Shown: in pieces, positions 45,956-63,843 of the stretch
How the letters are laid out: each line of letters begins with the position of its first letter
Numbering within the stretch: position 1 is the stretch's first letter
Assembly (NCBI RefSeq): GCF_014195545.1
Contig: NZ_JACIBX010000004.1
Location: forward strand, 124,001-188,000
DNA length: 64,000 bases
Source of the DNA: Limimaricola variabilis
GTDB taxonomy: Bacteria > Pseudomonadota > Alphaproteobacteria > Rhodobacterales > Rhodobacteraceae
Direction: 5' to 3'
Made by a program: the position numbers and the translations under genes
The notes under the pieces: model-generated
Seen by the model: the letters and a program-made list of their open reading frames with translations, nothing else
What the model was told of the DNA's origin: nothing
Database searches by the model: none

Positions 45956-46312
45956 CTATTCGGGCGCCGAGAAATGCGTTTCGCGCGCCTCGAGCGTGTA
46001 GCCCGATTCCGCGATCATGATCCCCATGAACACGATCGCGGCCAGCGGCGGCAGCAGGATCGCGTAGACCAGCGCCAGCCGCTCCCAGGCCATGTGCATG
46101 AAGACCGCGATGATCAGCCCGGCCTTGAGCGCCATGAAGAGCAGGATCAGGCCCCAGCGCAGCAGCCCCTGAAGCTGCGCGTAATCGACCATGTAGGAGG
46201 CCAGCGACAGCACGAACAGAAGGCCCCAGCAGACCAGATAAAGCCGGATCGGATGCGCCTGCCCCTCATGCGCGGTGGCGGGGGCGGTCTGTCGTGCGGA
46301 AGCTTGGGTCAT
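45956..46312 (-). CDS. Cytochrome c oxidase subunit IV-like (CyoD/COX4 bacterial type)
   Basis: A 118-residue membrane protein with three helices (LYLVCWGLLFVLSLASYMVD, LLRWGLILLFMALKAGLIIA, LVYAILLPPLAAIVFMGIMI). The KAGLIIAVFMHMAWE motif marks prokaryotic COX4/CaoD-like subunits. It is the last gene of the oxidase operon, 7 bp after subunit III. It has a structural or assembly role in the inner membrane. Confidence 0.85.
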   Translation of the reverse strand: MTQASARQTAPATAHEGQAHPIRLYLVCWGLLFVLSLASYMVDYAQLQGLLRWGLILLFMALKAGLIIAVFMHMAWERLALVYAILLPPLAAIVFMGIMIAESGYTLEARETHFSAPE

Positions 46313-46319
46313 GTCGGCC

Positions 46320-47039
46320 TCACCACAGGTAGAAGAATGCGAAGATGAACACCCAGACGAGATCAACGAAGTGCCAGTAGAGGCCCATGATCTCGACCGC
46401 CTCGTAGTCGCCTTTTTCGCGGCACAGCCAGGTGCGGCGGCCGCTGTCGAACTCACCCTTGCGGACCTTGTTCGCGACGATCAGCAGGAACAGCACGCCG
46501 AAGCTGACATGGGTGCCGTGAAAGCCGGTGATCATGAAGAAGGCCGCGCCGAACTGCTCGGCGCCGAACGGGTTGCCCCAGGGGCGGACGCCCTCGTGGA
46601 TCAGCTTGGACCATTCGAAGGCCTGCATGCCGACGAACAGCGCCCCGAGCGCCGCGGTGGCGTACATCAGCGCGGCGGTCTTCCTGCGGTCGCGCGCATA
46701 GGCGCAGTTCACCGCCATCGCCATCGTGCCCGAGGACGAGATCAGCACGAAGGTCATGATCGCGATCAACGCCAGCGGCAGGTCGGCGCCGCCGACATGC
46801 AGCGAGAAGACCTCGCTGGCATTGGGCCATTCCGCCTCGGTCGAGCTGCGGGCCGACATGTAGGAGATCAGGAAGATCGCGAAGACGAAGGTGTCGCTGA
46901 GCAGAAAGATCCACATCATCGCCTTGCCCCAGGACGCGCTCTTGAAGGCGCGCTGGTCGGAGGCCCAGTCGGCGGCGAGCCCCTCGAGCCCGTCGGGGCG
47001 GGGGCGATGGCGGTGTCCGGAAGCGGTGGCGTCGGTCAT
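46320..47039 (-). CDS. Cytochrome c oxidase subunit III
   Basis: A 239-residue subunit III with helices starting at WGKAMMWIFLLSDTFVFAIF. The family segments LQAFEWSKLI-like MQAFEWSKLIHEGVRPWGNP, FFMITGFHGTHVSFGVLFLL and LYWHFVDLVWVFIFAFFYLW carry the conserved His/Glu residues. It stabilises the proton-pumping core. It follows a second, shorter subunit-III-like gene. The start at 47039 is set by the family N-terminus (MTDATASGHRHRPRPDG). Confidence 0.92.
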   Translation of the reverse strand: MTDATASGHRHRPRPDGLEGLAADWASDQRAFKSASWGKAMMWIFLLSDTFVFAIFLISYMSARSSTEAEWPNASEVFSLHVGGADLPLALIAIMTFVLISSSGTMAMAVNCAYARDRRKTAALMYATAALGALFVGMQAFEWSKLIHEGVRPWGNPFGAEQFGAAFFMITGFHGTHVSFGVLFLLIVANKVRKGEFDSGRRTWLCREKGDYEAVEIMGLYWHFVDLVWVFIFAFFYLW

Positions 47040-47050
47040 GCTCGTCTCCC

Positions 47051-47743
47051 TCAGCTCAGGATCGCGCGGCACAGCGCGGCGGCGTCGGCGGCCCAGCCGG
47101 TGAGGATCGCCAGCATGGCGATCCAGACGATCAGCAGGAAATGCCAGTAGATAGCGCAAAGCCCGATGGCGGGCGCGGCCACGGCAGGTCCTCGGCCGTG
47201 CCGCGCCGCCACCCGCGCCAGCGCCGCCAGGCCGCCCAGCACGTGCAGCACGTGCAACCCCGAGATCAGGTAGAAGAAGCTCGCCCCCGGCGTGGCGGCG
47301 AGGCTCTGCCCGCTCTCGGCCAGCCGCACCCAGGCGAGGCCCTGCGCCATGAGAAAGCCGGCCATGGCGACCGTGCCTGCGCCGAGCCAGCGCGCGAGGC
47401 CGCGCGCGTCACCGCGTCGCGCGGCGAAAGAGGCCGCCTGCAGCGCGAGGCTGCTCAGCACCAAAAGCGCCAGCCCGATCCAGACCACGCCGGGGAGCCG
47501 CATCTCGAACCAGTCGGCATAGCCCATCCGCATGCTCACCGCGCTGCCCGACAGCGCGAAGAGCCCGCCCGCCACGATCAGGAAGATGCCGAGCCCGGCG
47601 CGCCCGGTGGGCTGCCCGCCGGGGGAGGGGATGCGGGTGACGGCGCCGGTTTCGAGCCATGGTCGATCCGCCACGCCCTGCTTCCACAGCCATGTCAGCG
47701 CGACGATGGCAACCAGCGCGACGAAGCCCAGCACGATGCTCAT
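47051..47743 (-). CDS. Second subunit III-like protein of the oxidase operon
   Basis: A 230-residue polytopic protein weakly similar to subunit III/NorE. Helices include LGIFLIVAGGLFALSGSAVS, VVWIGLALLVLSSLALQAAS and LHVLHVLGGLAALARVA. It ends with the subunit-III-like IGLCAIYWHFLLIVWIAM. The order II-I-III'-III-IV matches coxMNOP-type operons, where two subunit III genes occur. The start at 47743 overlaps the subunit I stop (ATGA). Confidence 0.75.
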   Translation of the reverse strand: MSIVLGFVALVAIVALTWLWKQGVADRPWLETGAVTRIPSPGGQPTGRAGLGIFLIVAGGLFALSGSAVSMRMGYADWFEMRLPGVVWIGLALLVLSSLALQAASFAARRGDARGLARWLGAGTVAMAGFLMAQGLAWVRLAESGQSLAATPGASFFYLISGLHVLHVLGGLAALARVAARHGRGPAVAAPAIGLCAIYWHFLLIVWIAMLAILTGWAADAAALCRAILS

Positions 47744-49512
47744 GGCACGTGGCTCCAGCTGGCGGGATGGCCGGGATCGTCCTGCGCGATGAAGTCGCGG
47801 CTCGCGCCGGGCACGCTGTACTCATAGGCCCAGCGATAGACCACGGGCAGTTCCTTGCCCCAGTTGCCATGGCGGGGCGGCATCTCGGGCGTCTGCCATT
47901 CGAGCGAGGCGGCGCGCCACGGGTTCGGCTCGGCCTTGCGGCCGTAGCGCAGGCTCCAGGCGAAGTTGAACAGGAACAGGATCTGCGCCGCACCGACGGT
48001 CAACGCCGCCACCGAAATGAAGGCGTTGAGCGTGGCGACGCTGTCGGGCACGAAGCTCGCCGAGATGTCCGGGTAGCGGCGCGGCACGCCGACGAGGCCG
48101 ACGTAATGCATCGGGAAGAAGATCGCATAGGCGCCGATGAAGGTGACCCAGAAATGGATCAGCCCGAGCCGGTGCGACAGCATCCGCCCCGAGATCAGCG
48201 GGAACCAGTGATAGATCGCGCCGAAGATCACCATGATCGGCGCGACGCCCATCACCATGTGGAAATGCGCCACCACGAACATCGTGTCCGACAGCGGCAC
48301 GTCGACCACCACGTTGCCGAGAAAGAGGCCGGTGAGGCCGCCATTGAGGAAGGTGACGATGAAGCCGAGCGCGAAGAGCATCGGCAATGTCAGGTGGATG
48401 TCGCCGCGCCAGAGCGTCAGGATCCAGTTGTAGACCTTGAGCGCGGTGGGCACCGCGATGATCAGCGTCGTGGTGGCGAAGAAGAAGCCGAAATAGGGGT
48501 GCATTCCCGAGACGTACATGTGGTGCGCCCAGACGATGAAGGACAGCGCGCCGATGATGACGATCGCCCAGACCATCATCCGGTAGCCGAAGATGTTCTT
48601 GCGCGCATGCACCGCGATCAGGTCCGACACGATGCCGAAGGCCGGCAGGGCGACGATGTAGACCTCCGGGTGGCCGAAGAACCAGAACAGGTGCTGGAAC
48701 ACGATCGGCGAGCCGCCGCCATAGCTCAGCTGCTGGCCCATCTCGACCAGCGCCGGCATGAAGAACGACGTGCCTAGGAGGCGGTCGAACAGCATCATCA
48801 CGGCCGCCACGAAGAGCGCCGGAAAGGCCAGGAGGGCCATCACCGTGGCGGTGAAGATGCCCCAGATGGTGAGCGGCATGCGCATCAGCGTCATGCCCCG
48901 CGTGCGCGCCTGCAGCACGGTGACGGCGTAGTTCAGACCGCCCATGGTGAAGCCGATGATGAACAGGATCAGCGAGACCAGCATCAGCACGATGCCCCAG
49001 CCGGTGCCGCCCGGCGTGCCCGACAGGATCGCCTGCGGCGGGTAGAGCGTCCAGCCCGCCCCGGTGGGTCCGCCCGGCGCGAAGAAGCTCGCCACCAGTA
49101 CCACCACGGCGGCGAAATACATCCAGAAGCTCAGCATGTTGACGAAGGGAAACACCATGTCCCGCGCGCCGACCATCAACGGGATCAGGTAGTTGCCGAA
49201 ACCGCCGAGGAAGATCGCGGTGAGCAGGTAGACCACCATGATCATGCCGTGCATGGTGATGAACTGGTAATACGCCTCGGCCGAGATGAAATCGAACACG
49301 CCGGGAAAGCCGAGCTGCATCCGGATCAGCCATGACAGGACCAGCGCGACCATGCCGATGGCGATCGCGGTGCCGGAATATTGCAGCGCGATGTATTTGG
49401 CGTCCTGGCTGAACACCCAGCGCGACCACCAGCCATGCGCGTGCGGCGGCGGAAGGTCGGGAACTTCGGCGGGCGGGATGCCGCTGTCTGGGTCTTCGCT
49501 GACGCTGCTCAT
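47740..49512 (-). CDS. Cytochrome c oxidase subunit I
   Basis: A 590-residue haem-copper oxidase core. Motifs: ITMHGMIMVVYLLTAIFLGG (low-spin haem His), WFFGHPEVYIVALPAFGIVS (CuB His, cross-linked Tyr and the E-278/286-type Glu of the D-channel), WAHHMYVSGMHP (CuB His pair) and VVAHFHMVMGVAP (haem a/a3 His). The Glu in GHPEVYI marks a type A1 proton-pumping enzyme. It acts in aerobic respiration at the inner membrane. It overlaps the subunit II stop by 4 bp. Confidence 0.96.
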   Translation of the reverse strand: MSSVSEDPDSGIPPAEVPDLPPPHAHGWWSRWVFSQDAKYIALQYSGTAIAIGMVALVLSWLIRMQLGFPGVFDFISAEAYYQFITMHGMIMVVYLLTAIFLGGFGNYLIPLMVGARDMVFPFVNMLSFWMYFAAVVVLVASFFAPGGPTGAGWTLYPPQAILSGTPGGTGWGIVLMLVSLILFIIGFTMGGLNYAVTVLQARTRGMTLMRMPLTIWGIFTATVMALLAFPALFVAAVMMLFDRLLGTSFFMPALVEMGQQLSYGGGSPIVFQHLFWFFGHPEVYIVALPAFGIVSDLIAVHARKNIFGYRMMVWAIVIIGALSFIVWAHHMYVSGMHPYFGFFFATTTLIIAVPTALKVYNWILTLWRGDIHLTLPMLFALGFIVTFLNGGLTGLFLGNVVVDVPLSDTMFVVAHFHMVMGVAPIMVIFGAIYHWFPLISGRMLSHRLGLIHFWVTFIGAYAIFFPMHYVGLVGVPRRYPDISASFVPDSVATLNAFISVAALTVGAAQILFLFNFAWSLRYGRKAEPNPWRAASLEWQTPEMPPRHGNWGKELPVVYRWAYEYSVPGASRDFIAQDDPGHPASWSHVP

Positions 49513-50345
49513 GGATCGCTTTCCTCCGCCGTTTCCGCCACCCGGACCGCGCCGCCCGCGGGCAGCCCCGCGAAGGTGACCTGCTCGCCGAGCCAACTGT
49601 CGAAATCCTCCGGCTCGTCGATCGACACGTAGCCGCGCATGACCCCGTGCCCGACGCCGCAAAGCTCGGCGCAGAGCACCTCGAACTCTCCGGTGCGGGT
49701 GGGGGTGAACCAGAAATAGGTGACCATGCCGGGCACCATGTCCATCTTGGCGCGGAACTCGGGCACGTAGAAATCATGCAGCACATCGACCGAGCGCAGA
49801 TTGACCCTGACCGGCTGGCCCAGCGGCAGATGCAGGTCGCCGCTGTCGATCACCACGTCGTCTGCGCCGAAGCGGTCATGCGGGTTGATGCCCAGCGGGT
49901 TGTCAAAATCGATCCATTCGGTGCCCGAACTGCCGAGCCGGCCGTCGGCGCCGGGCAGGCGGTAGCTCCAGTACCACTGCTGCGCCACCACCTCGATCTC
50001 GGTGGCGTCGTCGGGGACGGTGATGAAGCGCTTCCACACCACCAGCCCCGGCGCCAGCATCGCCGCCACCCCGAGCGCGGTGAGCGCGGTGAGCCAGATC
50101 TCGAGCTTGCGGCTCTCGGGTTCGTAATGCGCGACGCGCCCCGGCTTGTGGCGGTAGCGGAACACGCACCACGCCATGAACAGCACCACCGCGACAAAGA
50201 CCGCGCCGGTGATCCAGAAGGTGATGACGAGGGTGGTGTCGATATAGCCCCAGTTCGAGGCGATCGGGGTCCACCACCAGGGGCTGAAGAGGTGAAAGCC
50301 GACGGAAAAGAGAACAATCAGTACCAGACTGGCCGCAACGATCAT
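49509..50345 (-). CDS. Cytochrome c oxidase subunit II
   Basis: A 278-residue subunit with two N-terminal helices (residues ~3-20 and ~40-60) and possibly a third at 85-103. The periplasmic cupredoxin domain has the complete CuA site: His190 (LHDFY), Cys225, Glu227, Cys229, His233 and Met236 (CAELCGVGHGVM). The aromatic path QQWYWSYRLPG is present. No haem motif is fused. It is the first gene of the five-gene operon and receives electrons from cytochrome c. Confidence 0.95.
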   Translation of the reverse strand: MIVAASLVLIVLFSVGFHLFSPWWWTPIASNWGYIDTTLVITFWITGAVFVAVVLFMAWCVFRYRHKPGRVAHYEPESRKLEIWLTALTALGVAAMLAPGLVVWKRFITVPDDATEIEVVAQQWYWSYRLPGADGRLGSSGTEWIDFDNPLGINPHDRFGADDVVIDSGDLHLPLGQPVRVNLRSVDVLHDFYVPEFRAKMDMVPGMVTYFWFTPTRTGEFEVLCAELCGVGHGVMRGYVSIDEPEDFDSWLGEQVTFAGLPAGGAVRVAETAEESDP

Positions 50346-56086: not shown

Positions 56087-56834
56087 GGGCGGCGGTCCGG
56101 GGGCCTCGGCGCTCACGCATGATCCTGCACCTTGGCAGCCTGCATGGCGACGAAATCCCTGAAGGCCGACGATCCTTCGATTGCAGGGGCTCAGGTATCG
56201 AGCCGGCGACTGGCGGACAGGGAGGTCCGACCTTGCTGCCCGCAGAGAACGCCCAGGAGAGGGATGGTGGATCACTCCTGAGTGATCTTTCAAGTGCCGG
56301 TATTTGCCGGCATTTTTGTTTCGAAGGGAGCCAGACGGGCCGTTGAAACCTGGTGCTGACGTAGGGTCCTAAACCGCACGGGGGAACCTGAGCCGTCGAT
56401 CGTGGTTTCAGGTTTACTGTTCCGACACTGGCATGAAGGGGCAGCGCGCGCCGGTCAGGGATCCATTCCCCGCCCGGCGCGCGTGGCGTCTGTCACAGCC
56501 GGATCCCCGCCCGAAGCGTCATGCAAGAACCCCGCTTCGGGTGGCAAGCTCCCTATGTTTTGCGAAGGGCCGATCAGGACATCGCTCTCTGCCGGAGAAC
56601 GGCCGACGAGGTCTCACCCTTTAGGATCTCAGCTATGTGAGAGGACAGCCCAAGCCTCCGGTCGCGTGCCTTCGGCGCATGTCCGCGCGATGGATCAGAT
56701 GGCCGGACCATGGTCCGATTATTTCCCGATCAATCTGTGTCAAGAATCAGCACATACCGACACGGGCTTCCCCCAGCCCGGATCGGCACCCGACGATTTG
56801 ACGTTTGTCTGAAGCTTATGACCGGAGATTCATC
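56087..56834. other. Long intergenic region with lower GC and several hairpins
   Basis: A 748-bp stretch with no gene I can support. It has noticeably lower GC than its surroundings. It holds a hairpin GATCACTC/GAGTGATC (56270-56287), a proper terminator (56295-56317) and a hairpin CGGGCT/AGCCCG (56763-56780). Short open frames here have no domain and atypical codons. It may be decayed mobile DNA or the long control region of the next gene. Confidence 0.45.
56295..56317 (+). terminator. Rho-independent terminator
   Basis: TGCCGG-tatttg-CCGGCA followed by TTTTTG, about 210 bp beyond the Ldh-family stop on the same strand. It is the best canonical terminator in the window. Another 8-bp hairpin lies immediately before it. 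Confidence 0.8.
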
Positions 56835-57323
56835 ATGAAACTTTCCCAACTTCTGCTCACCACGTCCCTTTGCGCCGTGACTGCTTTGCCCGCGTCGGCG
56901 CAGCCGCGGACCTTTGCCTCGATCGACCAGAACCGTGACGGCAACCTGTCCATGAAGGAACTGACGGATGCCTTCGGCACCGCCGGTGCGGAGAGCTTCC
57001 TGGCCTATGCCGACCGCAATCGCGACGGCAGCGTCAGCGTTGCCGAAGCGCAGATCTCGCAGGATGACGAGGACGACGAGGACGACGAAGACGACGAGGA
57101 CGACGACGAGAATGATCGCGACAAGCGCGACGAGCGCGACGACGAGGAGGACGACGACGAGGACGATGACGACGACGAGGACGACGACGAGGACGACGAC
57201 GAGGACGACGACGAGGACGAGGACGACGACGAGGACGACGACGAGGATGACGACGAGGATGATGACGAGGACGACGAGGAGGATGACGAAGACGACGAGG
57301 ACGACGAGAAGGACGATAAGTGA
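56835..57323 (+). CDS. Secreted EF-hand protein with poly-Asp/Glu tail
   Basis: A 162-residue protein. Residues 1-23 are a Sec signal peptide (LLLTTSLCAVTALPASA-QPR). Two canonical EF-hand loops follow: D31QNRDGNLSMKE42 and D60RNRDGSVSVAE71, both with all Ca-coordinating positions. Residues ~77-162 are almost only Asp and Glu, broken by one basic patch (NDRDKRDERDD, 93-103) and two late Lys. The start at 56835 has GGAGA upstream. It acts in the periplasm or outside the cell, and high-capacity binding of Ca or other cations is expected. The tail is far longer than in typical EF-hand domain proteins. I know no characterised homologue. A perfect hairpin follows the stop. Confidence 0.85.
   Translation: MKLSQLLLTTSLCAVTALPASAQPRTFASIDQNRDGNLSMKELTDAFGTAGAESFLAYADRNRDGSVSVAEAQISQDDEDDEDDEDDEDDDENDRDKRDERDDEEDDDEDDDDDEDDDEDDDEDDDEDEDDDEDDDEDDDEDDDEDDEEDDEDDEDDEKDDK
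57063..57318 (+). repeat. GAC/GAG tandem triplet repeat coding for Asp/Glu
   Basis: About 255 bp built from GAC, GAG and a few GAT/GAA codons in 6-, 9- and 12-base units, interrupted near 57110-57145 by codons for N/R/K. The strand bias is extreme: the plus strand has almost no T. Such DNA is prone to slippage, so tail length may vary between strains. Confidence 0.9.
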
Positions 57324-57361
57324 TCTGATCGCGTCAGTTCAGCTCTGAGATCACCACTCTG

Positions 57362-57388
57362 GGCAGCCGCGAGTTTCTCGCGGCTGCC
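57362..57388 (+). terminator. Perfect 12-bp hairpin after the EF-hand gene
   Basis: GGCAGCCGCGAG-TTT-CTCGCGGCTGCC lies 39 bp after the EF-hand stop and 40 bp before the oxygenase start. No U-run follows. It may partly terminate or protect the mRNA so that the EF-hand protein is made in excess of the oxygenase. Confidence 0.6.
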
Positions 57389-57427
57389 ACCATCGGCAGG
57401 ATTGCGCATTCTTGAAGGAGGCCCGGA

Positions 57428-58087
57428 GTGGCGACACCTCTCTCGCAGACCAAGTTTGAAAAGCTCTTCTCGACGCCGCTGTTCCGTTTCGCCCTGGACG
57501 ATGCCGACAGCTTCAATGCCGAGCTCCTCGCCGAAGGGGAGCGCCTGCGATCTGAATCGGAGGGTGCGTCGAAATCGAACCGGGGCGGATGGCATTCGTC
57601 CGGCAACCTGTTCGACAACGAGGCGACCTGTTTCCAGCGTCTCAGATCCCACGCGGTGGAGGCCGTCATGACCGCGACCGACAAGATCGGCGCAAAGGCG
57701 GAAACGAGCCGGCTCGATCTCAAGATGTTTTCCTGGATGAACATCAACCCGCCGGGCGGATACAACGCGCCGCATACCCATCCTGGCGCGCATTGGTCGG
57801 GCGTCTATTACGTTGCGCAGCCGGAAGCCGAAACCGAATCCTCGGGGAAAGTCGAATTCCTCGATCCGCGAACCGACCTGCCGAATTGGCGGCTTCTCAA
57901 GGCGCCGTCCTTTTCCGCGAAGAAGACGATCCGGCCGGAGCCCGGGGAGCTGATCCTGTTCCCGTCCTATCTCGTCCACTGGGTCTATCCCAACGACACC
58001 GAAGAGAACCGGGTCTCGATCGCCTTCAACGCGACGTTCCGCAAGGCCGTCAAGAAGACCAAGGCCAAGGCGAAGACCAGCGCCTAG
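57428..58087 (+). CDS. Putative 2OG-Fe(II) oxygenase (TIGR02466-like)
   Basis: A 219-residue double-stranded beta-helix protein. It starts with LFSTPLFRFALDD, then MFSWMNINPPGGYNAPHTHP with the first His, GAHWSGVYYVAQP, GKVEFLDPR, and ELILFPSYLVHWVYPN with the distal His; RVSIAFN carries the 2OG-binding Arg. The C-terminus is Lys-rich (KKTKAKAKTSA). No signal peptide is seen. The GTG start at 57428 is favoured by AAGGAGG six bases upstream. The family is predicted, not well characterised; relatives may hydroxylate proteins or small molecules. Position next to the EF-hand/poly-Asp gene suggests that protein as a target, which is inference. Confidence 0.8.
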   Translation: MATPLSQTKFEKLFSTPLFRFALDDADSFNAELLAEGERLRSESEGASKSNRGGWHSSGNLFDNEATCFQRLRSHAVEAVMTATDKIGAKAETSRLDLKMFSWMNINPPGGYNAPHTHPGAHWSGVYYVAQPEAETESSGKVEFLDPRTDLPNWRLLKAPSFSAKKTIRPEPGELILFPSYLVHWVYPNDTEENRVSIAFNATFRKAVKKTKAKAKTSA

Positions 58088-58136
58088 GGCAGGGCGCCGC
58101 TGCGGGACAAGGGGCCGTCAGCCCCGGTCCCGTCGC

Positions 58137-58781
58137 TCACTCACCGAGGCCCCAGCCCTCATGTGCGATCAGCGCGGCTTCGACGCGATTGCGGGCGTGA
58201 AGCTTGCCCATGATACCGGTCATGTAGTGCTTCACCGTCTTCTCCTGCAGGCCGAGCGCTTCGGCCACCTCCTTGTTGCTCTGGCCCTTGGCGACGCATC
58301 GCAGGATATCCTCCTCGCGCTTCGTCAAATCCTCGAGCGGCGAGTTCGGCGCGCGCTGCGGGGGCTGCGACATGTAGTTGAGAACCCGTTCGGCGAATTG
58401 CGGCGAGACATGCGCCTCGCCCCGCGCGACGCCTTTCAGGATCTCGCGCAATTCACTCGCTGAGATGCCCTTCAGGATATAGGCGATCGCGCCGAATTTC
58501 AGCGCGCTCGCGACGTTCTCATCCTCTTCCGACACGGTGAGCATGGCGACATGCGTCGCGCTGCCCGCTGCGGAGATTGCCTTGACGGCGGCCAGCCCTC
58601 CGCCGGGCATGGAGAGGTCGAGAAGCGCGATGTCGGGTCGGGTCTGATCCGCGATCTGCACGGCTTCTTCCGCAGAGCTTGCGGCACCCACGACCTGGAA
58701 TTCCCCGGTTTCCTCGAGGCTGGTGATGACCCCTGCCCGAAAGATCGGATGATCATCGGCGACAACAATACGAACCGTCAT
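58137..58781 (-). CDS. NarL/FixJ family response regulator
   Basis: A 214-residue regulator. The receiver domain has the acidic pair VVADDHPIFRAGV, the phospho-Asp in DIALLDLSMPGG, Thr in AMLTVSEED and Lys in YILKGISA. The C-terminal LuxR-type HTH is LTKREEDILRCVAKGQSNKE, VAEALGLQEKTVKHYM. Its start overlaps the stop of the histidine kinase gene (ATGA). It likely controls genes of this block; target sites cannot be read from sequence. Confidence 0.93.
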   Translation of the reverse strand: MTVRIVVADDHPIFRAGVITSLEETGEFQVVGAASSAEEAVQIADQTRPDIALLDLSMPGGGLAAVKAISAAGSATHVAMLTVSEEDENVASALKFGAIAYILKGISASELREILKGVARGEAHVSPQFAERVLNYMSQPPQRAPNSPLEDLTKREEDILRCVAKGQSNKEVAEALGLQEKTVKHYMTGIMGKLHARNRVEAALIAHEGWGLGE

Positions 58782-60169
58782 TTCTGATCCTCCGAGATTG
58801 GCAGGCGCAGGCGAAGCTCGCTGCCCTTGCCCAGTTCCGATTTGATTGAGACCTCGCCGCCCAGCGTGGCCGCGCGATCCGACAATCCGGGCAATCCCTG
58901 TCCGCCGTCATCGCGCAATTCGGACCGGAGCTGCGGATCGAAGCCTGGCCCATTGTCCGACACGACGACATTGATCCAATCGCCCTGCATTTTCAGAGCC
59001 ACCCTGATTTGCGTGGCTTGTGCATGTCGGCTGGCATTCGAGAGCGCCTCCTGCACGAAACGATATATGCAAAGCTTTGTCGCATATGACGCGTCGATCG
59101 CGCCTATTGAATCGCTCTGCAACTCCGCTTGAGATCCGAAACTCTTGTTATGGTCGCGGACGGCCTGCGCGGCGCATTGCCCGAGATCGAGCCTGGCAAG
59201 ATCCGGAAGCGCCAATCCGCGCGAAATCGCCCTCAGCTCCGACATCGCACTCGCGAGCGCTTGCCTGACGGTATCGGCGTCCTTAGAGGGCCCGATCCCC
59301 GCGCTTTCGAGGCGCAGGCTGACGAGCGACAGGTGCTGCGCCACGCCGTCATGCAGATCCTGTCCGATGCGCTGCATGATCTTTTCCGATTGCGCGGCCG
59401 CGCGTTGGGCGGCCCCGGACACGTGCTTGCGCAGCGCATCGTTGGTCTGGGACAGCCTTCGGCTCTCATAGAGCTGCGACTGAAGCTGCTCGCGTTGGCG
59501 CTCGATGAGCCGGCTGCCGATATGCACGATGATGAACAGCAGCGCACCGCTCAGCCCCAGAATGCCGGCCACCAGCATCCAGCTTTCGCGGCGCGCCTCG
59601 ACCAGCTCCAGAGCGAGATCTTCGGCGCGCTGATAGAACTCGACGACCGCGAGGACGTCACCCGTTACCGTGTCCCGGATCGGCACATACACCTCGAGCA
59701 GTGGCAGGCTCACCGCCACCTCGGGATGATCGCCCGAGACCTGCAGCGCCTGAAACTGCGAGGCCACCTCGCCCGCCCAGGCCTTCTCCAATGCCTGGGA
59801 CGGCTCGTAGGAGCGCCCCCGCAGCTCCGGCCGGTAGGACTCCAGGATCTCTCCGGATTGGCTCCAGACGTTGTAGGTCACGACCCGCTCGCTCAGCCGG
59901 CCTTCGCGAAACACCTCGCGCAGAGCAAGCCCGGCCTCGCGAGAGAGAGTCTCTCGATCCCCCTGGCCCCAGGATTGGTTGGGGATCAGGCTCTCGATGT
60001 AGAGCGCGGCCGAGGTGCCCGAGTTCTGCACGACGCCCTGTTCGATACGATCGGCGACCCAGCTGCCCACCACATAGGCGGCCACGAAAATCACCGCCCC
60101 ACCCGCGAACAGGAAGCGGAAGGAAAGCGAGTGAAAAAGAGGCGAAAGCGCGCTGAGCATGGCTGTCAT
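58778..60169 (-). CDS. NarL-type sensor histidine kinase (HisKA_3)
   Basis: A 463-residue membrane kinase. TM1 (FLFAGGAVIFVAAYVVGSWV) lies at ~15-35, followed by a ~165-residue periplasmic sensor region (ALYIESLIPNQSWGQGDRE; VVTYNVWSQSGEILESYRPE). TM2 (MLVAGILGLSGALLFIIVHI) precedes a coiled coil, the phospho-His in IGQDLHDGVAQHLSLVSLRL, and an HATPase domain (YRFVQEALSNASRHAQAT; VVSDNGPGFDP; GQGLPGLSDRA). The sensor region has no recognised fold. The ATG at 60169 is chosen as the first Met before TM1. It pairs with the next gene, the regulator. Confidence 0.9.
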   Translation of the reverse strand: MTAMLSALSPLFHSLSFRFLFAGGAVIFVAAYVVGSWVADRIEQGVVQNSGTSAALYIESLIPNQSWGQGDRETLSREAGLALREVFREGRLSERVVTYNVWSQSGEILESYRPELRGRSYEPSQALEKAWAGEVASQFQALQVSGDHPEVAVSLPLLEVYVPIRDTVTGDVLAVVEFYQRAEDLALELVEARRESWMLVAGILGLSGALLFIIVHIGSRLIERQREQLQSQLYESRRLSQTNDALRKHVSGAAQRAAAQSEKIMQRIGQDLHDGVAQHLSLVSLRLESAGIGPSKDADTVRQALASAMSELRAISRGLALPDLARLDLGQCAAQAVRDHNKSFGSQAELQSDSIGAIDASYATKLCIYRFVQEALSNASRHAQATQIRVALKMQGDWINVVVSDNGPGFDPQLRSELRDDGGQGLPGLSDRAATLGGEVSIKSELGKGSELRLRLPISEDQK

Positions 60170-60463
60170 CAGCCCTTGATGCGGTGAATTCGCGCGTTTT
60201 GCTACCGACCAAGGTCCGAGGTTGGCGGATGACCGCCTGCGGCGGGGCCATCGCCTGATGTGCAGGGGAAGGGTGGGCCGAGAGGGCATGACAGGGGGAT
60301 GCGAAGGCTCGTTCACCGCTCAGCTCCGGCCGAACGCAGGCGGCGTGGTGACGTGGGTTGGCGCGTGGAGTGCTTTCGAATGACGTGCGTCGCGCACCGT
60401 GATGCGCAGGGCCGCGCAAGTGGTGGCGGAGCTGCGGCGCTCCCGCGCTCGATCACCCCGCGC

Positions 60464-61465
60464 TCAATGCACGTGGCCGGCCAGCTCATGGTCATGATCG
60501 TGATCTGTCGAGGCGCCGCGATCCATATCGCCCGCGGCCTCCGTCTCGTCCGGTAGCGCTTCGAGCCGCAGTGTTTCGGAATGCAGGTAGACGATCAGGT
60601 CCGCCACGTCGTTCTCGCTGAGGCCGAACCGCGGCATGCGGACCGCGGGAAACGCCTGGTCGAGCTTGACCGCGATCGGGTCCCCTTGCGCCAGCATCCG
60701 GTCCGGCGATCTGATGTAGCGCATGAGCCAGTCGCGATCCCGCCGCAGCGTGACGCCCTCGAGATCGGGGCCGACGCGCACCCCGGCGCCGATCGAATGG
60801 CAGGCGGCGCAGGCCTTGTTGAACAGGCCTTCGCCCACCCGGTTCTGCGCGGCGAAGCTTTGCAGCGTGCGGCCGTCGATCACCCTCGCCGGGGCTCGCG
60901 GCGGTGCCCAGTCCGGGTCGAGCGCGAGAATGTCGGCCGTCGCGGCGGCAAGGTTGCCCATCAGCGAGGTGCGCCGCCATTCGCCCGTGCCGGCGTTGCC
61001 GATCAGGATGTCGCTGCGGTGATCGCTCAACCGCTTGCTGCGCTCGCCGAGCTTGTAGCGCAGCAGGGCGACGTCGTCCGGCGCGCCGGTGAGAAAGTAC
61101 CAGCCCTCGCCAGCGCCGAAGGCTTCGGCATAGGCGGCCAGCTCCTCCGGCGCGTCGCGCTCGGGCGTGAGGGAGATCGAAATGAAGACGATCTCATCCT
61201 CCATCCGGTCTTCCAGCCATTCGTGGACCTTGGCCAAACGCGCGGTGGCGAGGCCGCAGATGTCGGGGCAGTCGAGGTAGAAGAAATTGACCACGGCGAT
61301 CCGCCCGTCGAGCACGTCATCGACGAAGCGCAGCTCCCGCCCCTGTTGATCCAGAAGCCGCGTGTTCGGGAAGTAGTCGAGGTCCCAGCGGCCGGGCATC
61401 GCTGGCGAGGCTGCGAGCGTGGTCGCAAGCGCGACCACGCCCAGCCAGAAGCGATGCATGGTCAT
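60464..61465 (-). CDS. Sco family protein fused to cytochrome c, with His/Asp tail
   Basis: A 333-residue exported protein. Signal peptide 1-~22 (FWLGVVALATTLAASPAMPG). The Sco/SenC thioredoxin domain has the copper/redox motif FYLDCPDICGLA (CxxxC) and a conserved late His (SDHRSDILIGNAG). From ~residue 205 a class I cytochrome c follows: haem motif CAACHSIG and axial Met in RMPRFGLSENDVADLIVYLH. The tail (DHDHDHELAGHVH) is a likely metal-binding site. Sco proteins deliver copper or act in redox; the fusion suggests electron transfer with a copper enzyme. It overlaps the multicopper oxidase stop by 4 bp, so they are co-transcribed. Confidence 0.88.
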   Translation of the reverse strand: MTMHRFWLGVVALATTLAASPAMPGRWDLDYFPNTRLLDQQGRELRFVDDVLDGRIAVVNFFYLDCPDICGLATARLAKVHEWLEDRMEDEIVFISISLTPERDAPEELAAYAEAFGAGEGWYFLTGAPDDVALLRYKLGERSKRLSDHRSDILIGNAGTGEWRRTSLMGNLAAATADILALDPDWAPPRAPARVIDGRTLQSFAAQNRVGEGLFNKACAACHSIGAGVRVGPDLEGVTLRRDRDWLMRYIRSPDRMLAQGDPIAVKLDQAFPAVRMPRFGLSENDVADLIVYLHSETLRLEALPDETEAAGDMDRGASTDHDHDHELAGHVH

Positions 61466-63843
61466 CCACGCCTCCGGGAACGCCGCCCCGACCGCGAGTC
61501 GTCGTCATCATCATCGTCGTCATCATCCTCGGCCTGCGGGTTTCCGGAGAACTGCTTGGAGAACGGGTTGCCCTCGGGCAGGATCTCGGGATCCCGGTAG
61601 CTCACACCGTATTTCGATGGATCCGGCGTCGGGATCACGCTGACATGCTGGTAGGACTGGTTCGGGTCCTTGGGATCGGTCAGCAGGTCATAGCGCGCCA
61701 GCATCGCCCAATCCTCGTGGACGGTGTTGTGGCAATGCGTGACATAGGCCCCGCCATACTCCCCGAAGGTCACCTGGATCCGGACCTGGCCGCCCGCGCC
61801 TGTGCGCCAGACGTCCTTGCGCGCGCCGCGCTCGAGCGCCGACATGCGTGCCCCGCCACGATCGATCGTGATCCCCTCCTCGAAGTGGAGGTGGACCGGG
61901 TGGTCCCAGCCGCCGCTGCTGTTCTCGATGATCCAGTGCTCGGTCACGCCCGGCTCGGGGACGAGCAGGCTGACCCGGTTGGCGTTGAGGAAGTGGTTGG
62001 ACTCGCCGTTGACGCGGACCGACCAGCCGAATCCCTCGATGTTGCGATCGGCGCAGTCGGGGAAGCATTCGCCGGTCATCAGCTCGTCCTGCTGATCCGT
62101 TCCCTTGAACTCCAGATGGCGGACGCGCACCGGCTCCACGATCGGGATCGGATCGGTCAGCTGGGCGGGAACGCGGCTGTAGTCGGGGTCGGAGGCGCGG
62201 TGGATCTTGCCCGGGTTGTCGACCGACTCCACTTCGCGCACCACCCGGAATTCGAGGAAGGTGCCCACCGCCGGATCGTCGGTTTCCTGATTGATGGCCT
62301 CGAGCCGGGGCAGATACTCCTTGGGCTTGGCGCCGTCCTGATGCTCGGCGACGTTCAACATCCGGAGCTTGGCGCCGATCGGGAAGGCCGAGAAGTCGAC
62401 GATCACGTCGAAGCGTTCGGCGGTGCCCATAGGGTCGAGCTGGTTCACGGTGACCGGATTGACCAGCAGGTTGCCGTCGGTCGAGATGACCTGCATCGGC
62501 ACCCAGCGGTTGCGACTGTCGAGCAGCCCGAGCCGGATGAAGCGCGACATGCAGGCATTGAGCAGTCGGAACCGGTACTTGCGCGGCAGCACTTCGAAGA
62601 ACGGCTTGTAGGCGAAGTTGACCAATAGCAGGTCGCCGAGGAAACCGACCGTGTCGAAGATGTCGAAGAAGTACTGGCCGTCGGGGTTGAGCGCCGCGTC
62701 AGAGATCATCAGGTTGACGTCGAAATCGATGTTGCCCCAATCAAGCTCGCTGCCGCTCGGCAGCTGCAGGTTCACGCCGTCCCAGAGCCGTTCGTTGCCC
62801 CGGTCTGGTCCGCTGTAATAGTTGAGCGCGCCGAGATGCCCCTTGTAGACGTTCTCGGCCGTGAAGAAGAAGCGGTGGTCATGCATCCACAGTGAACCCT
62901 GAAGCTCACGGTAGTCGCCCTTCACCTGCACCAGACCGCCATAGCCGTCCGGACCCGACGCACGCGGGTCGGTGGCATCGGTGTTGATCATGTCGGCACG
63001 CGCCAGCGTCGTCGACCAGTGGTAGTCGTAGAACTGGCCGGGATAGAAATGCGCGTTCGAGGCGCCGTCGCTCGCCGAGGCATTGTGACCGTTGTGGTTA
63101 TGGGTGGCCTGGCTGAGGGAGCCGAAAATGCTATTCTCCTCGGCGTCCTCGGGCAGCAGGTTGTAATGCCGGAAGATCACCGGCTCGCCGTAACGGAGCT
63201 TCATCAACGGTGGCGGCAGCACCGACTTGCGGTTCTGGCCCGAATTGAAGGTCCATACGCTGTCACGGTCCTGATCCGGAAACTCGGGGTGGAAGGAAAC
63301 CCCTCCGTCCAGCTGGCCGAGAGACATTACGAAGGCCTTCTTCGGCAGGTATTCCTGCCATCGCTGATGTGCGAAATACTCGCCCGGCGGCCGCCCTTCC
63401 ATCGGTCCGTGCGAGAACTCGGGATTCCGGCAGTCCTTGCCGTCCGACATGGTGAAATCGGTGTGGTAGGACAGGCGCCGCGCCGGCGGCTCGTCGAGCT
63501 CTTCGGGGAAATGCAGATCCAATTCGTAGCCGCGGTAACGGGGCTCGAGCGGGTGCGGCTCCTCCAGGCGGAGCCGCGGCATTTTCTGGGTGAAGGGCCG
63601 CGCCCCGAAGGTCGGGCTGCGCGGGACCCCGGTCGGAATGCCCTGCGCATATGCGCTGGAAGCGAACGGGCTCAGCCCGTTGATATTGGCCAGCGTGCCG
63701 GCGCTGGTGAAGATCCCCCACTTGAAGAGTTCACGGCGGGTGACCTGCCCCCGAGACAAGGCCATGACGATCTCGGCACGATTTTTCCGGGCGTTCTCCG
63801 CTTCCCTGATGCGGTGACGCGATGCATGGCGCATTAGATACAT
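61462..63843 (-). CDS. Tat-exported multicopper oxidase with poly-Asp tail
   Basis: A 793-residue multicopper oxidase. A long basic n-region leads to a Tat motif (TRRELFKWG, Arg36-Arg37) and h-region, cleaved near AYA-Q (~66). Copper motifs: THNHNGHNA, LWMHDHRFFF, HPVHLHFEEG and VTHCHNTVHEDWAM; the last gives T1 Cys/His with axial Met. Three cupredoxin domains are likely, with inserts making it longer than CotA/CueO. The C-terminus has ten consecutive Asp, then SRSGRRSRRRG. A possible Mn, Fe or Cu oxidase; the substrate is unknown. The ATG at 63843 has GGAGG nine bases upstream; a later ATG at residue 27 is possible. It is the first gene of the pair with the Sco-cytochrome. Confidence 0.9.
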   Translation of the reverse strand: MYLMRHASRHRIREAENARKNRAEIVMALSRGQVTRRELFKWGIFTSAGTLANINGLSPFASSAYAQGIPTGVPRSPTFGARPFTQKMPRLRLEEPHPLEPRYRGYELDLHFPEELDEPPARRLSYHTDFTMSDGKDCRNPEFSHGPMEGRPPGEYFAHQRWQEYLPKKAFVMSLGQLDGGVSFHPEFPDQDRDSVWTFNSGQNRKSVLPPPLMKLRYGEPVIFRHYNLLPEDAEENSIFGSLSQATHNHNGHNASASDGASNAHFYPGQFYDYHWSTTLARADMINTDATDPRASGPDGYGGLVQVKGDYRELQGSLWMHDHRFFFTAENVYKGHLGALNYYSGPDRGNERLWDGVNLQLPSGSELDWGNIDFDVNLMISDAALNPDGQYFFDIFDTVGFLGDLLLVNFAYKPFFEVLPRKYRFRLLNACMSRFIRLGLLDSRNRWVPMQVISTDGNLLVNPVTVNQLDPMGTAERFDVIVDFSAFPIGAKLRMLNVAEHQDGAKPKEYLPRLEAINQETDDPAVGTFLEFRVVREVESVDNPGKIHRASDPDYSRVPAQLTDPIPIVEPVRVRHLEFKGTDQQDELMTGECFPDCADRNIEGFGWSVRVNGESNHFLNANRVSLLVPEPGVTEHWIIENSSGGWDHPVHLHFEEGITIDRGGARMSALERGARKDVWRTGAGGQVRIQVTFGEYGGAYVTHCHNTVHEDWAMLARYDLLTDPKDPNQSYQHVSVIPTPDPSKYGVSYRDPEILPEGNPFSKQFSGNPQAEDDDDDDDDDDSRSGRRSRRRG

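What the first reader, a model, noticed from the sequence alone, without database searches (positions are those of the whole stretch)
56835..63843. Candidate undescribed metal-handling or mineralising module
EF-hand/poly-Asp protein, 2OG oxygenase, NarL-type kinase and regulator, Sco-cytochrome c and poly-Asp multicopper oxidase are clustered, while surrounding genes are ordinary metabolism. A lower-GC 748-bp gap separates the block from the operon before it. The shared acidic tails are the link. A sensing, sequestration and oxidation system is a coherent hypothesis but rests on adjacency.
Basis: inference. Interest (0 to 1): 0.75.

Follow-up and report, generated by a model that had tools for sequence, protein, structure and literature searches.

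The report
Manganese-oxidising enzyme island on a plasmid
The copper oxidase and its copper-delivery partner in this stretch belong to a bacterial enzyme family with one member reported to turn dissolved manganese into mineral, and they sit in the same kind of secretion-and-oxidation gene island; two of the six genes first grouped with them look like chance neighbours.

Summary
All six genes are present as described. The proposed grouping is partly right, and the window's end cuts it. The conserved core is the multicopper oxidase (MCO, 61462-63843) and its Sco-cytochrome c partner (60464-61465): a Sco-haem gene follows the MCO in 62 of 75 relatives with enough downstream DNA. Just past the window lie a 2,514-aa MopA-like haem peroxidase with a type I exporter, then type II secretion genes. 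The same parts stand together in Aurantimonas manganoxydans and in a genome that carries both published primer sites of ge001273, a Georhizobium MCO reported to oxidise Mn(II) in vitro; that protein and the window's are 56.7% identical over 767 aa. Kinase-regulator pairs of the window's family recur beside such MCOs (7 of 48 loci) and beside peroxidases. The EF-hand/poly-Asp protein and the 2OG oxygenase were found beside none of 80 MCO relatives, and the long acidic MCO tail only in Limimaricola among 17 rows examined. Best reading: a plasmid-borne extracellular Mn(II)-oxidation island, a new member of a known kind. Mn is inferred from homology and neighbourhood; halide or phenol oxidation is not excluded, and the peroxidase also occurs without the MCO.

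The parts
61462..63843 (-). Multicopper oxidase, 793 aa, twin-arginine motif near the N-terminus, four copper-ligand motifs
   Evidence: PF07731 E 4.5e-13; copper ligands H248, H250, H321, H323, H648, H651, H653, H703, C704, H705, H709 invariant and M714 nearly so in 15 relatives; 56.7% identical over 767 aa to the product of the gene with both ge001273 primer sites
60464..61465 (-). Sco1/SenC-cytochrome c fusion, overlaps the MCO gene by 4 bp; likely copper chaperone of the MCO
   Evidence: PF02630 E 2.1e-17, PF00034 E 2.2e-9; C66, C70, H149, haem C219xxC222H223 and M277 invariant in 15 relatives; such a gene right after the MCO in 62 of 75 loci with at least 1.2 kb downstream
58778..60316 (-). 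HisKA_3-type sensor histidine kinase (start uncertain; the L. variabilis annotation begins about 50 codons later)
   Evidence: PF07730 and PF02518; L. variabilis annotation; kinase tree
58137..58781 (-). NarL/LuxR-type response regulator, overlaps the kinase gene by 4 bp; candidate regulator of the island
   Evidence: PF00072 E 3.3e-21, PF00196 E 1.2e-19; pair recurs at 7 of 48 MCO loci and upstream of the peroxidase at 8 of 10 plasmid loci without MCO
57428..58087 (+). TIGR02466 2OG-Fe(II) oxygenase; probably a neighbour, not a part
   Evidence: beside 0 of 80 MCO relatives; in 1 of 8 Limimaricola genomes
56835..57323 (+). Secreted-looking EF-hand protein with an acidic tail of about 85 residues; probably a neighbour, not a part
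   Evidence: beside 0 of 80 MCO relatives
56292..56315 (+). Terminator-like hairpin in the 748-bp gap, after the preceding gene
   Evidence: Consensus match only

Best explanation
The MCO and its Sco-cytochrome c partner are one half of a plasmid-borne island for extracellular oxidation of Mn(II). SHOWN here: gene content, copper and haem ligands, the conserved MCO-Sco pair, the adjoining MopA-like peroxidase with a type I exporter, the type II secretion genes, and the same set in A. manganoxydans and in the genome with the ge001273 primer sites. INFERRED: the MCO is exported folded by Tat; the Sco domain loads its copper in the periplasm while the cytochrome domain handles electrons; the type II system moves the loaded enzyme outside, where it oxidises Mn(II) with O2 as acceptor. 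The peroxidase, exported by the type I system through its calcium-binding repeats, oxidises Mn(II) directly or through superoxide. The kinase-regulator pair switches the MCO side, and perhaps the peroxidase, on. The EF-hand and 2OG genes are bystanders.
For: Family: a pattern from the start of ge001273 matched 3 of 394 genomes; in one, G832, both published primer sites are exact and the MCO (777 aa, 87.2 kDa; the paper gives 100.7 kDa with a SUMO tag) is 56.7% identical to the window's. Around it within about 34 kb: regulator-kinase, peroxidase, T1SS ABC, HlyD, Sco-cytochrome c, MCO, GspG, GspE, GspD, kinase-regulator. A. manganoxydans has T1SS ABC, a 3,331-aa peroxidase, GspD, GspE, Sco-cytochrome c and a 58% identical MCO within about 28 kb. 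That peroxidase is the genome's only match to the query, and MopA of this species is a published Mn(II) oxidase (PMC6247904, passages). Own genome. Co-occurrence: peroxidase at E<=1e-40 in 24 of 29 MCO genomes against 2 of 385 in a class sample, one of the 2 being the window's own; peroxidase and MCO within 20 kb on one contig in at least 12 of 29. Fuscovulum ytuae has gsp, MCO-Sco, a regulator, peroxidase and T1SS on one plasmid.
Against: No Mn oxidation is reported for this organism in what I could search. The published GE001273 activity is low (about 6 Mn per enzyme overnight, copper in the buffer). The peroxidase is within the flank of only 4 of the 48 fully flanked MCO loci (7 of all 80) and occurs on 32 plasmid records, of which only Limimaricola and Fuscovulum also gave a full-length MCO match. 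The window peroxidase is closer to Azospirillum (66%) and Paracoccus (64%) ones without an MCO nearby than to that of A. manganoxydans (49%). G001 and G005 have the MCO but no peroxidase match. IoxA, an iodide oxidase with Sco and gsp neighbours, could not be compared. The 24 of 29 and the 2 of 385 come from differently drawn samples.
Confidence: 0.6

Rival explanations
1. An extracellular halide (iodide) oxidation system: the MCO, like IoxA, and the peroxidase, like a haloperoxidase, make I2 or hypoiodite that act against competitors.
For: The iox cluster of Iodidimonas also joins an MCO with SCO1/SenC genes and is flanked by gsp genes; IOX is extracellular and uses O2; iodide oxidation is also known in Roseovarius (PMC9415286, passages).
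Against: IoxA is given as 62 kDa with three Sco homologues and IoxC; here the MCO is 89.8 kDa with its leader, with one Sco fused to cytochrome c and no second Sco match in the 40 kb beyond the window. The characterised relative was assayed for Mn, not iodide, so iodide is untested rather than excluded.
Confidence: 0.15
2. A laccase-type or cuprous oxidase: the MCO oxidises phenols or Cu(I) and serves copper tolerance or breakdown of organics, and Mn oxidation is a side activity.
For: Closest solved structures by sequence are bilirubin oxidase, CotA and CueO; the published Mn activity of GE001273 is low; weak CueO profile match below its cut-off.
Against: NCBIfam CueO and CopA scores lie far below cut-off (90.8 of 525 and 19.8 of 478.95 bits); type II secretion genes lie close to 19 of 48 relatives, which suits an enzyme acting outside the cell; linkage to a MopA-like peroxidase.
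Confidence: 0.13
3. Two unrelated cassettes side by side: a peroxidase with its type I exporter serving some other purpose (adhesion, antagonism), and the MCO cassette.
For: Peroxidase cassettes occur on plasmids without an MCO nearby. The peroxidase body differs sharply between two otherwise near-identical plasmids.
Against: Peroxidase in 24 of 29 MCO genomes against 2 of 385, and within 20 kb of the MCO in at least 12 of 29, A. manganoxydans among them.
Confidence: 0.06

Closest known systems
GE001273 multicopper oxidase of Georhizobium sp. MAB10 (PMC11708043)
   Same: Same family by sequence (56.7% over 767 aa), Sco-cytochrome c next door, same set of secretion and peroxidase genes in the genome with its primer sites
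   Different: Window member lies on a plasmid-like replicon, has a long Asp tail, and is untested; the genome with the primer sites is unnamed, so identity with strain MAB10 is not shown
MopA heme peroxidases (A. manganoxydans, Erythrobacter sp. SD-21, P. putida GB-1)
   Same: Animal haem peroxidase domain plus calcium-binding repeats, very long (PMC6247904, passages)
   Different: About 49% identical to the A. manganoxydans one over 1,001 aa; lies beyond the window
iox iodide oxidase cluster of Iodidimonas (PMC9415286)
   Same: MCO with SCO1/SenC partner and gsp genes nearby
   Different: 62-kDa IoxA, three Sco homologues and IoxC there; one Sco-cytochrome c fusion here; IoxA sequence not available to compare
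mnxG operon of P. putida GB-1 and mofABC of Leptothrix (PMC8218464, passages)
   Same: Mn-linked MCO with an SCO-family gene (mnxG) or a cytochrome c gene (mofC)
   Different: Separate genes instead of a Sco-cytochrome c fusion; mnxG is controlled by MnxS1/MnxS2/MnxR; sequence kinship to McoA, MnxG or MofA was not measured

Membership tests
GE001273-type multicopper oxidase | Full-length homology with all copper-ligand motifs | tested here: met
   56.7% over 767 aa; ligands conserved in 15 relatives
GE001273-type multicopper oxidase | Same gene neighbourhood | tested here: met
GE001273-type multicopper oxidase | Mn(II) oxidation by the enzyme | not testable with these tools
   Needs an assay
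MopA-type peroxidase (gene beyond the window) | Animal haem peroxidase domain with hemolysin-type calcium-binding repeats | tested here: met
   PF03098 E 2.3e-62, PF00353 E 5.7e-62
MopA-type peroxidase (gene beyond the window) | PERCAL calcium motifs | not tested
   Named in PMC6247904; not searched
MopA-type peroxidase (gene beyond the window) | Mn(II) oxidation | not testable with these tools
   Needs an assay
iox iodide oxidase cluster | Three Sco homologues in the cluster | tested here: not met
   One Sco in the cluster; no further match in the 40 kb beyond the window
iox iodide oxidase cluster | gsp genes nearby | tested here: met
iox iodide oxidase cluster | Sequence kinship to IoxA and presence of IoxC | not tested
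   No IoxA or IoxC sequence reached; a plasmid search listed none among 40 of 196 records
mnx system of P. putida | MnxS1/MnxS2/MnxR-type regulation | tested here: inconclusive
   The regulator here is NarL/LuxR-type; that MnxR is of another type is recalled, not compared
   EF-hand 0 and 2OG 0 of 48 fully flanked loci, Sco 38, kinase-regulator pair 7; all six together only in L. variabilis among the loci examined

The most novel reading that the evidence does not exclude
The MCO-Sco-T2SS cassette and the peroxidase-T1SS cassette are two oxidases of one transferable programme: a dual-enzyme extracellular oxidation island, plasmid-borne in Limimaricola and Fuscovulum. The copper enzyme uses O2 while the haem enzyme uses or makes reactive oxygen, and kinase-regulator pairs of one family set each half. 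The peroxidase body is exchanged between otherwise near-identical plasmids, as for a gene under diversifying selection.
Probability: 0.3. Interest if true: 0.7.

Novelty: new member of a known kind. Interest (0 to 1): 0.5.

Why it matters
Why bacteria oxidise manganese, and with which enzyme, is still open. MCO and MopA-type enzymes are mostly studied one at a time. Their linkage in one island with their own exporters suggests that they may work together. It also names a regulator to delete, and a genus in which two genomes carry the MCO without a peroxidase match and three carry both, so that each part can be tested.

Tried and rejected
EF-hand and 2OG genes as parts of the system: rejected, with the reserve that the EF-hand query is short and low-complexity. 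Poly-Asp tails as the link: rejected as a conserved feature. A RepABC-type replicon: PF03428 gave no match in the genome, but that search rang in only 1 of 14 control genomes; the plasmid reading rests on similarity to NZ_CP139694. IoxA as closest kin: could not be tested. Tying the kinase-regulator pair to the peroxidase alone: an idea, weakened (the G832 island has two pairs, the closer match flanking the gsp genes) and by the kinase tree, where the window's side (support 100/99) holds all 5 MCO-context rows and 3 of 8 peroxidase-only rows; the regulator tree is weakly supported and does not separate the contexts. Sigma-70 promoter scan: 0 found. Structure prediction: none obtained. An earlier count said 13 of 29 genomes have peroxidase and MCO within 20 kb; recounted it is 12 (G425, 426, 427, 429, 431, 433, 435, 438, 440, 444, 446, 448), a lower bound because one search's list was cut.

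Caveats on counts. The ten peroxidase plasmid loci are ten that I chose of the 30 records other than Limimaricola and Fuscovulum (32). Neighbours were sought with my own blastp queries at E 1e-8, so distant versions can be missed. The 20 control stretches come from six genomes.

Papers: PMC4082002, PMC5122683 and PMC5854784 read whole. PMC9415286, PMC5928188, PMC8218464, PMC6247904, PMC11930936, PMC6839870, PMC9765421 and PMC11708043 seen as passages. Others seen as search listings. That I did not find the island described rests on the searches only.
Full report
WHAT IS THERE. The window is G000:C4:124001-188000. Its genus is Limimaricola by similarity: its last 25 kb match plasmid unnamed03 of L. 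variabilis OXR-209 at 96.6% over 100%, and 91% of its first 25 kb match it at 97.5%. The six genes of the finding are real and rightly named. MCO and Sco-cytochrome c overlap by 4 bp, as do kinase and regulator; all four are on the minus strand. The EF-hand and 2OG genes are on the plus strand and convergent with them. The 748-bp gap is real and of lower GC (0.616 against 0.682).

WHAT THE WINDOW CUT OFF. Along C4 the next large gene, divergent from the MCO, is a 2,514-aa peroxidase (from C4:188917) with an animal haem peroxidase domain and calcium-binding repeats. It is followed by a type I secretion ABC protein, a cadherin-like protein with calcium-binding repeats, an HlyD protein, and GspE, GspF, GspG and GspD homologues (GspD only 26% identical). 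The L. variabilis plasmid has the same order from EF-hand to peroxidase and type I exporter, with a GspE-like gene beyond.

THE CONSERVED CORE. Of 75 loci with at least 1.2 kb downstream of the MCO, 62 have a Sco gene with a haem motif right there. Of 48 loci with at least 7 kb on both sides, 38 have Sco, 19 two or more gsp genes, 4 the peroxidase (7 of all 80), 7 a kinase-regulator pair, 0 the 2OG and 0 the EF-hand protein. In 20 control stretches of 20 kb from six genomes, Sco, gsp, peroxidase and the kinase-regulator pair gave 0, while the exporter query hit 7, so exporter hits alone mean little. Copper and haem ligands are invariant or nearly so in 15 aligned relatives of each protein.

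DISTRIBUTION. In the genus 5 of 8 genomes carry the full-length MCO; the peroxidase at E<=1e-20 is in 3 of these 5 (G000, G006, G007) and in none of the other 3. In a sample of the window's family the MCO is in 3 of 394 genomes, in a class sample in 1 of 385, the window's own: patchy, as for transferred genes. Among 29 MCO-bearing genomes the peroxidase is in 25 at E<=1e-20 and in 24 at E<=1e-40, against 2 of 385 in the class sample at 1e-40, one being the window's own genome. In at least 12 of the 29, peroxidase and MCO lie within 20 kb on one contig. The samples were not drawn alike; see the caveats. Against a tight bond, the peroxidase occurs on 32 plasmid records of which only Limimaricola and Fuscovulum gave a full-length MCO match, and the window peroxidase is closer to Azospirillum (66%) and Paracoccus (64%) ones without an MCO nearby than to that of A. 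manganoxydans (49%).

THE LINK TO MANGANESE. A. manganoxydans SI85-9A1, whose MopA is a published Mn(II)-oxidising peroxidase (PMC6247904, passages), has T1SS ABC, a 3,331-aa peroxidase, GspD, GspE, Sco-cytochrome c and an MCO 58% identical to the window's within about 28 kb. That peroxidase gene is the only place matched in its genome, so it is taken to be MopA by inference. Independently, PMC11708043 (passages) reports that recombinant GE001273, an MCO of Georhizobium sp. MAB10 with homologues over 70% identical in Rhizobium, Aurantimonas and Ensifer, forms Mn oxide in vitro. A pattern taken from the start of that gene matched 3 of 394 genomes of the family of G433, a Rhizobium. In one of them, the unnamed G832, both published primer sites are present exactly and the protein ends as the reverse primer encodes. 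That protein is 56.7% identical to the window MCO over 767 aa and 75.8% to the A. manganoxydans one. Around it, within about 34 kb, stand regulator-kinase, peroxidase, T1SS ABC, HlyD, Sco-cytochrome c, MCO, GspG, GspE, GspD and a second kinase-regulator pair. The window island thus has the same parts as two islands that each hold a published type of Mn(II)-oxidising enzyme. The published GE001273 activity is low and was measured with free copper present, so Mn as the physiological substrate stays an inference.

THE REGULATOR. On ten plasmid loci with the peroxidase but no MCO nearby, a kinase and regulator of this family stand upstream of the peroxidase in 8. In MCO loci such a pair occurs at 7 of 48, two of them alike only in the kinase domain. 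In the kinase tree the window's side, support 100/99, holds all 5 MCO-context rows and 3 of 8 peroxidase-only rows; the regulator tree does not separate the contexts. The family goes with both halves; which promoter it binds is not shown.

WHAT PROBABLY DOES NOT BELONG. The 2OG oxygenase has its best plasmid relative outside L. variabilis near katG in Sulfitobacter. The EF-hand protein keeps its EF-hand part in L. variabilis but differs in the make-up and length of its acidic tail. Neither was found beside any of the 80 MCO relatives.

VERDICT. A new member of a known kind, Mn(II)-oxidising MCO and MopA-type peroxidase loci, with an island structure that I did not find described in the papers that I could search. 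Confidence 0.6 for Mn(II) oxidation as the main role; iodide oxidation 0.15; phenol or copper oxidation 0.13; unrelated cassettes 0.06.

Noticed in passing
G000:C4, about 1,000 to 7,000 bases beyond the window's right end (L025), compared with L021: Between the two near-identical plasmids the flanks and the last 1.4 kb of the peroxidase gene are about 96-99% identical, but most of the peroxidase body is only 72-87% identical with one stretch missing in L. variabilis, as if the allele had been exchanged.
   Followed up: partly
L150, L151, L155, L156, L158, L159, L160, L161: A recurring plasmid cassette without MCO: kinase and NarL/LuxR-type regulator upstream of a giant peroxidase, then a type I exporter (ABC in all eight, cadherin-like and HlyD genes where the stretch and annotation reach that far).
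   Followed up: partly
L048 and L092 (Nitrospira-type genomes): A second, distant MCO (about 28-30% identical) with a short Sco gene and GspG/GspE close by, near the window-type MCO; a possible kin of the IoxA type, not tested.
   Followed up: no
window 46004-50289: A set of haem-copper cytochrome oxidase genes with two subunit III-type proteins, alike in Rhizobium and Sinorhizobium plasmids at about 78-80% DNA identity.
   Followed up: no
L166: The MCO of this close relative of the ge001273-type gene reads in two overlapping frames (456 and 390 aa), so it is either a broken copy or an assembly error.
   Followed up: no
L084, L113: Two MCO-Sco pairs in tandem on one stretch, pointing to duplication of the pair in Burkholderiales and Acidobacteriota.
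   Followed up: no
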